From NCBI GenBank assembly GCA_903813345.2, contig CAIIXF020000001.1:26587915-26651914 (forward strand): a stretch of DNA of 64,000 nt. The letters run 5' to 3'. Shown here one piece after another: positions 46,801-49,800 of the stretch. Within the stretch, counting starts at the first letter, position 1; the number at the start of each line of letters is the position of its first letter. The notes beneath the pieces are model-generated. The model saw only the letters and a program-made list of their open reading frames with translations, did not search any database and was not told where the DNA came from. A program made the translations under genes and the position numbers. Source of the DNA: Owenia fusiformis (lineage: Eukaryota > Annelida > Polychaeta > Sabellida > Oweniidae).

Positions 46801-49800
46801 CTGATGGTTGTTTAGCCAAGAGAGCAAAGAATAAATGAATGTTTACTTGAGGGAACTTTCAGCCAAGAAACTATTAACTAATGTTTACTAGTATCTTAAG
46901 GCAATTTCAACCAAGAGATAAAAACTATGACAAAGTGCTTACCTTAGGGCAGTTTCAGCCAAGAGGGCAATATTCTCAGCATAAGCCACACGCACCATCA
47001 CCACTGGGTCCTGCACCAAGTTACTCTGCGTAAAGAAATATCATGTGACATTCTTAAGAAATAATAATCGAAAAATGAATTGCCTATTTATAATTCAACT
47101 TACAAATTATTAACAATTAAGACTCAAATGTTGCTTGAAAAGAATTGATAGATAATACAATTCTTTCACTTAAGTGCCCAGTGATAACAAATGCCACAAT
47201 ATCATGCAGCCTAGATAAAATCTGAGATCAAAACATACTGGAAATAGTACTATATTATGTATGTACTATACATGTACATATAACATAAAGTTGCCATTTT
47301 TCTTACAGCGCAACTATCGTCAAATATTCAACTGAAGATTTGGCCATTAATATGGGGAAAAATATAGCTTACCAAGTTAGGAAGAATATACTCGGGGAAT
47401 ATATTGGCATCATTTACAGGCAGAGTTTTGATATTAGCCAGGCACTGTGTTATGGTCCTCAGTGCTGCAGCTCTCACTCTGGGGTACTGATCTTGGATGA
47501 GATGCAACTGAAATGGAACCACAATAAATGCAATGCAACTCTGGAGTACTGGTCCTGGATCAGATGCAACTGAAAGGGAACCACAATAAATGCAATGCAA
47601 CTCTGGGGTACTGATCTTGGATGAGATGCAACTGAAAGGGAACCACAATAAATGCAATGCAACTCTGGGGTACTGATCTTGGATCAGATGCAACTGAAAG
47701 GGAACCACAACAAATGCAATGCAACTCTGGGGTACTGGTCCTAGATGAGATGCAACTGAAAGGGAACCACAACAAACGCAATATAACTCTGGGGTACTGG
47801 TCCTGGATCAGATGCAACTGAAAGGGAACCAAATAAATGCAATGCAACTCTGGGGTACTGGTCCTGGATGAGATGCAACTGAAAGGGAACCACAATAAAT
47901 GCAATGCAACTCTGGGGTACTGCTCTTGGATCAGATGCAACTGAAAGGGAACCACGGTAAATGCAATATAAGCAGGCCCTCAATTTAAATAAAAAAGAAT
48001 GGATTGTATGTTAATATTGCATCTGAACCTCTCTTTCTTTTTAATAAATTCAAGATTTTATAAAGTATATTTTTAGTTTATAAAAGTTTTTTAGTTTATT
48101 CACATTTTGTACTTAAAACGTGTACATACATGTAGTATACATTACCTTGAGAACTCAGAAATCAATCAGAATTCTAATACAAAGCAATTATAGGAATCTT
48201 GAAAACCAGGGAAACCCAGAAAAATGAACTCTTGTTGTCAAACAAACTAAATTCAACTGTAACTGTGATGAGGATATTTTTTAAGGTGGATTTTTTTATA
48301 TTTACCATATATGGCACTAATCTGTCCATGATGATGACAGGAGGTAGATACTCAGACAACTGTTTCAACACATCAAGGGCATCCAACTTGGAGCTGCAGT
48401 ACTGAAAACAAATTTGGGGTAAAGTCAGGTCTGGTTGCCTTAGCAACAAATTAACACTTTTAAAGTTGAGAACTGGCAGGGAAAAATAGCGAAGAAAAGC
48501 TGCACAAATTGCAATAATTGCATATTCTAGATTTCAACTCCCAGTAAAATCTAAAAAAGTTTATCCAGTTCTGATGAGAATATATTTTATGAGCTGCAGT
48601 ACTGAAAGCAAATTTGTGTTATGTCAGGTCTGGTTGCTTTAGCAACAAACTAACACCTTCAGAGGTGAGAACTGGCAGGGAAAAACAAAATTGCAAAGGA
48701 AAACTGCACAAATTGTAAATTTTAGATTTCAACTCCAAGTAAAATCTTTAAAACATTTATCAGTTTTATTCCTAGTACTGCTATTTATAAGCAGGTTTTG
48801 GCATTTCTTTATACTTAATTTAAACCTGGATTTGTTTTAGATGTAAAAATGTACTTACATTTAAGTCTCTAAGATTTGATGTTAGCAAAGACACAAGAAT
48901 AACAAGACTTGTGTTCTCTGTTTCTCCAGATGATGATACCAACTTCAATTCTTTTTTAATCAGGTCCAAGTCTTTCTTAACTCTGTAAGTAAGAAAAATG
49001 TAATTTATTAAGAGAGTGTGTGCTTGTTTCTGCAAAAACAAACAATCAAAGGATTGGGATACAATATTGTATTAAAAAATTCAAACATATGTTTGAGAGC
49101 TAACTTTTGTATAATTTAGATTGTTTGCTGTTTGCTAATAACTGTGTAGGCTCTTGTGCTTTTATGCATTTCTGTCACACTTGTTTTGAACAATTGATAT
49201 AAAAAACAACATGACAGATACTCTCAGAATTACAGCTTTACTGTACATTATACAAACTATCTGAAATTCACTAAAAGTTAAGTTTCTAAAATATAAATGT
49301 ATTTTCTATGTAATATTATTCTTGTGGTCCATTAACTGCTTATTTTTGTGAAAACAAATCAAAACTAACTTAATGAATGGAACTGAACTATTGCAAAAAT
49401 TGTTCATTATTATTATACATATATCAACAACAAATCTGGTCACCTCATGATGCGAGCATCTGGACTCATTATTGGCGTACTAGCGAATCTCTGGATGTAT
49501 AACTTCAGGAATGTGTAGAATGTATCAGGAAAGGCTTTGCCTCTCTGTTGTATGAGATATTCCTCAGCTGAGAGGCGGTGGTTCGGATCTTTCTGTATCA
49601 TGTGCCTCGCCAGTTCCTTTAAAGAGTAGAAGGGGTAGAGATAAGTTTAGATTAAATTGTCAAAATTTTTAAATATTTTGCTCTCATCATTCCACAGTCC
49701 AACAGTTCAGGTTAAGATTGACATGATTTTTCGAAAAGTTGTTTCATACATTTTTCTTATTCCTTTTTAAGTCAATTGATTGATATAGGAACAATGCCAT

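What the first reader, a model, noticed from the sequence alone, without database searches (positions are those of the whole stretch)
47475..47965. Exon 11 acceptor of PIK3R4 copied seven times in a 62-bp array of decoy splice sites
Each unit keeps the polypyrimidine tract, the AG and the first ~33 bases of exon 11 (predicted acceptors at about 47507 and then every 62 bases up to about 47940). 62 is not a multiple of three, so most decoys shift the frame. The acceptor three units upstream (47693) is in frame, and that frame is open, so its use would add 62 residues of the form [15 protein letters not shown]. The near-identity of units shows recent expansion or homogenisation. This is a natural test of acceptor choice in an essential gene.
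Basis: partly seen in the sequence, partly recalled or inferred. Interest (0 to 1): 0.8.

Follow-up and report, generated by a model that had tools for sequence, protein, structure and literature searches.

The report
Splice-site minisatellite ("mirage") in PIK3R4
A short stretch covering the start of one exon of a housekeeping gene has been copied into a row of eight, so the cell meets eight look-alike splice sites; this kind of repeat is already described in lancelets, and here it turns up in several genes of an animal that appears to belong to a different branch.

Summary
On the minus strand, 47476-47967, a 62-bp array carries eight TTTCAG acceptors (one spacing is 61); the last opens exon 11 of a PIK3R4/VPS15 gene. 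A crude matrix scores the seven upstream copies nearly as high as the authentic site. Only the copy at 47693 is in frame and open (+62 codons); the other six meet a stop inside the enlarged exon. That copy lacks the branch-point-like TTTAY seen in six of eight units.

It is not a new kind. Minisatellites spanning intron-exon boundaries are known in amphioxus as "mirages", apparently spliced normally (PMC3087553 passages). The host here looks like a protostome. Similar arrays occur in CCT8-, CCT2-, TCP1- and ISWI-like genes of this genome, and PIK3R4 has two more. Near-perfect local duplications are not enriched at exon edges: 3 of 120 edges, 275 of 6553 flank windows. I read the array as a tolerated by-product of minisatellite growth. 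No RNA or read data were available.

The parts
47476..47967 (-). 62-bp tandem array of eight units (one of 61), each with about 29 nt of 3' intron end and 32 nt of exon 11 start
   Evidence: TRF; unit alignment
47373..47507 (-). authentic exon 11 of PIK3R4 (135 nt, phase 0), acceptor TTTCAG|TTGCAT, donor GTAAGC
   Evidence: gene model, coding exons 1-20 in one frame; PDB match to PIK3R4
47508..48305 (-). intron 10 (798 nt), whose 3' part holds the seven upstream acceptor copies
47693..47699 (-). the only upstream acceptor that is in frame and open (first exon base 47693; +186 nt)
   Evidence: no TTTAY at -18
48406..48486 (-). end of intron 9 at the exon 10 acceptor; a near-copy lies 199 bp upstream in the gene
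   Evidence: repeat family D5; sequence
48605..48685 (-). upstream copy of the exon 10 acceptor region, 84% alike; its acceptor TTTCAG|TACTGCAGCTCATAA (first exon base 48601) would give a stop at codon 5
46943..47025 (-). exon 12, donor CTAAG|GTAAGC, source of the decayed donor array
46655..46917 (-). six decayed copies of the exon 12 end plus donor, covering 198 of the 314 nt of intron 12; by eye five of six have lost the GT
   Evidence: (five best scores: none of 500 mononucleotide shuffles reaches the observed score at the same rank), sequences

Best explanation
The array is a mirage-type minisatellite: a 62-bp segment straddling the end of intron 10 and the start of exon 11 was tandemly duplicated, then grew by further local duplication (slippage or unequal exchange) to eight near-identical units. 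It has no dedicated function. The spliceosome mainly joins exon 10 to the exon-proximal acceptor (47507), because only that acceptor stands 135 nt from a donor and is followed by the whole exon; upstream acceptors are tolerated, and transcripts that use them mostly carry early stops and would be degraded. Shown: the array, intact acceptor sequences, frames, recurrence in the genome. Inferred: growth mechanism, choice by exon definition, decay of mis-spliced transcripts, lack of function.
For: Array and intact acceptors. The exon-proximal acceptor keeps the frame and is collinear with human VPS15 without an insertion. Six of seven upstream acceptors lead to stops inside the enlarged exon 11. 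The enlarged exons would be 197-568 nt, while the 28 located exons of this gene are 44-284 nt. No usable donor lies in the array (best GT 0.7 bits; weakest authentic donor 4.8, authentic scores not leave-one-out). A founder-like junction remains: u4 begins after AGAGT with TATATTGC, like the upstream intron edge CTTATATTGC. Recurrence: CCT8-like L046 (9 acceptor units including the authentic one, 83/89 bp), CCT2-like L051 (4, 96 bp), ISWI-like L065 (5, 137 bp), TCP1-like L041 (donor edge twice, 154 bp). In L046 all eight upstream acceptors run into a stop after 20 residues. Amphioxus precedents: regular splicing reported despite mirages (PMC3087553 passages; PMC3902484 passage).
Against: No RNA, no reads, no second individual or related species. 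The acceptor matrix barely separates authentic (8.6) from decoys (7.3-8.0), so preference for 47507 is not predicted by site strength. The invariant 22-nt core (-14 to +8) among the seven decoys is longer than expected (p 0.048; test chosen after seeing the data), which could hint that decoys are bound or used; with the authentic copy included the longest run is not unusual (p 0.29). In CCT2-like L051 all three upstream acceptors are in frame and open, so decoys are not always harmful. At 47693 the frame is also kept, with 62 extra residues.
Confidence: 0.75

Rival explanations
1. The array regulates dose: a fixed fraction of transcripts uses upstream acceptors, takes a stop and is destroyed, so array length tunes PIK3R4 output.
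For: Decoys keep AG and pyrimidine tract, score close to the authentic site, and six of seven give stops. Invariant core -14 to +8 in decoys, p 0.048.
Against: Arrays of the same kind in unrelated housekeeping genes, and local duplications are not enriched at exon edges. Two of seven decoys (47755, 47693) lack the branch-point-like motif.
Confidence: 0.12
2. The in-frame acceptor 47693 makes a real VPS15 isoform with 62 extra residues in the helical repeat region.
For: In frame and open.
Against: The extra residues are read in three different frames of the repeat, and openness depends on which unit carries CTC rather than CTG, since CTG gives a stop in one frame (my reading of the sequences); its -18 motif is TTTGT, not TTTAT.
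Confidence: 0.04
3. Assembly artefact: copy number, or the array, is not real.
For: Tandem arrays are a known trouble spot (general knowledge); in PMC3087553 the draft version of one amphioxus mirage was misassembled (passage). No reads were available.
Against: Units differ from each other at 2-9 positions and one has a 1-bp deletion; arrays with different units and periods occur in several genes. The exact copy number may still be off.
Confidence: 0.07

Closest known systems
Amphioxus 'mirages' (Adh3; globins BflGb6 and BflGb9; also said to occur in troponin C, and similar repeats in PGBD5). PMC3087553 and PMC3902484: passages read; the original Adh paper is not held
   Same: Tandem repeats spanning an intron-exon boundary; acceptor and donor edges both affected; many units keep AG or GT; published unit lengths 10-160 bp. 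BflGb6 has 6 and 3 acceptor-edge units in two haplotypes, 81-100% alike.
   Different: Host here looks like a protostome, not a lancelet; normal splicing and length polymorphism are reported in amphioxus and were not testable here; several genes of one genome were sampled here.
Human 6-16 (IFI6/G1P3) minisatellite giving multiple splice donor sites (1995; seen only as a title in a reference list; anything beyond the title is recalled)
   Same: A minisatellite whose units carry splice sites.
   Different: Donor rather than acceptor sites; by its title the copies there provide donors to the transcript, here use is unknown.
Intron gain by tandem duplication (Rogers model as cited in PMC3087553; human tandem repeats at exon-intron boundaries, PMC2812944 passages)
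   Same: Tandem duplication that copies splice signals; intron 12 of PIK3R4 is 63% decayed copies of the exon 12 edge.
   Different: No evidence here that an intron is new; intron positions were not compared between species.
NAGNAG tandem acceptors (PMC3250501, start of abstract in the listing)
   Same: Several acceptors for one exon.
   Different: Spacing 62 bp with a complete acceptor in each unit, not 3 nt sharing one tract.

Membership tests
Mirage minisatellite | Tandem units that straddle an intron-exon boundary | tested here: met
   about 29 nt intron plus 32 nt exon per unit
Mirage minisatellite | Minisatellite-size units (10-160 bp in the published cases) | tested here: met
   62 bp; published range from passages
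Mirage minisatellite | Splice dinucleotides kept in many units | tested here: met
   AG in 8 of 8 units
Mirage minisatellite | Internal units homogenised, boundary units left out | tested here: inconclusive
   u1 differs from the others at 6-8 positions, but internal u4 at 5-9, and the last unit u8 at 2-9
Mirage minisatellite | Regular splicing at the authentic site | not testable with these tools
   no RNA data
Mirage minisatellite | Length polymorphism between alleles or somatically | not testable with these tools
   no second haplotype seen; single match in the genome
Tandem exon duplication / mutually exclusive exons | Each copy has both acceptor and donor | tested here: not met
   best GT in the array 0.7 bits against 4.8 for the weakest authentic donor
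NAGNAG tandem acceptor | Two AGs three bases apart | tested here: not met
   spacings 61-62

The most novel reading that the evidence does not exclude
Mirage arrays are a genome-wide feature of this protostome: minisatellites arise at exon edges as they do in nearby sequence and are not strongly purged there, so that of order 1-3% of exon edges, many in essential genes, carry rows of intact decoy splice sites. Such a genome would be a large natural experiment on how the spliceosome picks one of several nearly equal sites, and decayed arrays (such as intron 12 of PIK3R4) would show minisatellites turning into intron sequence.
Probability: 0.45. Interest if true: 0.68.

Novelty: new member of a known kind. 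Interest (0 to 1): 0.5.

Why it matters
Eight nearly equal acceptors in a row before one exon make the choice of splice site depend on position and exon context rather than on site strength, which is hard to arrange by mutation at one site. If such arrays are as common as the small sample suggests, RNA data from one animal would give many replicates with different unit lengths, numbers and frames. The kind itself is known from lancelets, so this extends its reach rather than founding a class.

Tried and rejected
Splice-site targeting: no support. In PIK3R4, 2 of 54 splice-site windows against 84 of 503 intronic windows (which include these arrays) have a local copy at score 30 or more; that scan did not pick up the decayed exon 12 donor array, which needed a laxer score. 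In other genes, 3 of 120 exon-match edges score 60 or more and 6 of 120 score 50 or more, against 275 (4.2%) and 374 (5.7%) of 6553 flank windows. The edge figure is the best of nine window positions per edge and the background is per single window, and the background includes the arrays themselves and is clustered in 20 of 60 loci, so enrichment is excluded only loosely and depletion cannot be judged; no formal test was made.

124-bp dimer as the unit of growth: the CTG/CTC alternation is perfect over eight units (chance 2 in 70, a site picked after seeing it) but the lag test over all sites gives p 0.34; left open.

Copies of the array elsewhere: none returned (that search skips very common words). 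Amphioxus as host: dropped after a bantam match (that bantam marks protostomes is recalled). Molluscan haemocyanin domain PF14830: no match, but nothing rang in the controls either, so this shows nothing. COX1: no match. Host name: twelve contigs of 32-62 Mb add up to about 477 of 498 Mb, which fits Owenia fusiformis (505.8 Mb, 12 chromosome-scale scaffolds; PMC9977687 passages); inference only.

Two kinase matches 178 bp apart looked like another mirage; the sequence shows a pair of GSK3-like exons, each with its own acceptor and donor, so it was dropped.

Limits of the sample: the three edges at score 60 or more all came from the 30 Cpn60 matches (60 edges) and none from the 30 kinase matches (60 edges); match ends are not splice sites, and some kinase matches may lack introns. 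Only the 60 best matches of 204 listed (144 kinase, 60 Cpn60) had loci. L065 was found by reading the SNF2 match list (73 matches), not by the same scan; the 29 proteasome matches were listed and not read as sequence.

Full report
Observation. The array is real in the assembly. TRF reports 47476-47967, period 62, 8.0 copies. On the minus strand there are eight TTTCAG acceptors with first exon bases 47940, 47878, 47817, 47755, 47693, 47631, 47569 and 47507; one spacing is 61, the other six 62. Each unit has about 29 nt of intron end and 32 nt of exon start; units differ from one another at 2 to 9 positions. A search of the 498-Mb genome with the array returned one match, itself.

The gene. Coding exons 1-20 join in one frame, and residues 1-829 align to human residues 1-837 at 57.6% identity. 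The acceptor at 47507 opens exon 11 and continues the alignment without a gap: window [14 protein letters not shown], human PYLLHFSNDSVPRV. Exons 21-28 are clear by similarity, but the frame does not run from exon 20 into 21, so at least one exon there was not located.

Frames. From 47507 the exon is in frame. Of the seven upstream acceptors only 47693 is in frame and open, adding 62 codons; the other six meet a stop inside the enlarged exon 11. The 61-bp unit takes the sixth copy out of frame. The inserted peptide reads the repeat in three successive frames, so [15 protein letters not shown] appears only at its ends.

Strength. A matrix from the other acceptors of this gene scores the authentic site 8.6 and the decoys 7.3-8.0; the next best AG scanned in intron 10 and the exon start scores 3.9. 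In the AG-free stretch before each acceptor, six of eight units have a branch-point-like TTTAT or TTTAC at -17 or -18; the units at 47755 and 47693 have TTTGT. That the branch point lies there is inference. The array contains no usable donor by a donor matrix, so extra cassette exons are unlikely.

Not alone in this gene. The exon 10 acceptor region has an 84% copy 199 bp upstream with its AG intact; its use would give a stop at codon 5, and it scores 8.5 against 7.6 for the authentic site. Intron 12 (314 nt) contains six decayed copies of the exon 12 end plus donor, covering 198 nt; the five best scores were tested and none of 500 mononucleotide shuffles reached them at the same rank. By eye five of the six have lost GT, four of them to AG|AT, which could be one old change that was then copied (sequences).

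Not alone in this genome. I scanned 120 match edges in 60 loci (30 kinase, 30 Cpn60 matches) for near-perfect local copies. Three edges scored 60 or more, all in Cpn60 loci: L046, CCT8-like, nine acceptor units at 83 or 89 bp; L051, CCT2-like, four at 96 bp; L041, TCP1-like, the exon end and donor twice at 154 bp. Three further edges scored 50-56, in windows lying 40-60 nt outside the match, so possibly intronic. L051 also carries a 105-bp array whose unit holds a donor-like sequence. The SNF2 match list showed five tandem matches to one profile segment; the sequence is an ISWI-like exon start repeated five times at 137 bp (L065). Gene names here rest on my reading of the translations and the Pfam family. 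Read in the frame that is open in the authentic exon, all eight upstream copies in L046 run into a stop after 20 residues, all three in L051 are open and in frame, and all four in L065 meet stops.

Rate. Near-perfect local duplications (score 60 or more) touch 275 of 6553 flank windows (4.2%) and 3 of 120 edges (2.5%); at 50 or more, 374 of 6553 (5.7%) and 6 of 120 (5.0%). The edge figure took the best of nine window positions, which favours edges, so there is no sign that duplications seek out splice sites; whether selection removes some there cannot be told from this sample, which is small and drawn from few genes.

Host. let-7 is present above Rfam's cut-off (mature sequence seen). A bantam match scored below the cut-off (53.2 against 61), but the mature sequence is recognisable. 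From recalled knowledge of these microRNAs the host is a bilaterian and most likely a protostome. Size and twelve large contigs fit the annelid Owenia fusiformis; this is not proven.

Known kind. [quoted passage not shown] the authors say that their RT-PCR and the Adh3 data suggest no interference with regular splicing, and propose a role in intron gain. PMC3902484 (passage) adds PGBD5 and cites troponin C. My searches listed no paper that I recognised as describing such arrays in a protostome; they cover open-licence PMC only, and I saw titles and abstract starts, plus passages of PMC2812944 and PMC12783039.

Mechanism. Shown: a founder-like junction in u4 (AGAGT|TATATTGC) that matches the upstream intron edge. 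Inferred: the first duplication joined the exon after position 32 to the intron about 30 nt before the acceptor, and the array grew by slippage or unequal exchange. Inferred: choice of the exon-proximal site by exon definition, since upstream sites would make exons of 197-568 nt in a gene whose located exons are 44-284 nt. The strongest indirect argument is that PIK3R4 and CCT8 are essential in well-studied animals (general knowledge) and most or all upstream sites would break them.

Verdict. A tidy case of a known kind, in an unexpected branch of animals and possibly common there. The single array merits modest interest; the genome-wide reading would merit more and is directly testable with RNA data.

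Noticed in passing
window 46655-46917 (minus strand): Intron 12 of PIK3R4 is 63% made of six decayed copies of the exon 12 end and donor, five without GT by eye.
   Followed up: yes
window 48406-48486 and 48605-48685: Exon 10 acceptor region duplicated at 199 bp with both AGs intact.
   Followed up: yes
L046, L051, L041, L065: Splice-site-bearing tandem arrays in CCT8-, CCT2-, TCP1- and ISWI-like genes.
   Followed up: yes
L046, minus strand, upstream breakpoint of the array: CTCCCA occurs both at the intron edge of the array and in the exon where the unit ends, as if microhomology seeded the first duplication (read by eye).
   Followed up: no
L051 1-252: 105-bp array, 2.4 copies, whose unit on the minus strand holds a donor-like CTAG|GTAAGT after a coding-looking stretch.
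   Followed up: no
window 38556-38735 and about 40150-40330 (minus strand); L065 about 1010-1200: A dispersed element of about 180 bp, with ends that look inverted (CAGTGAAACCTGT-like), lies just upstream of the acceptors of PIK3R4 exons 24 and 27 and next to the ISWI-like array; 42 matches returned, 40 of 2922 first-look candidates scored.
   Followed up: partly
L066 about 395-710: Two divergent GSK3-like exons in tandem, each with acceptor and donor and separated by an intron of under 50 nt; looks like a mutually exclusive pair.
   Followed up: no
window 46015-46324: 134-bp tandem repeat, 2.3 copies, in intron 13.
   Followed up: no
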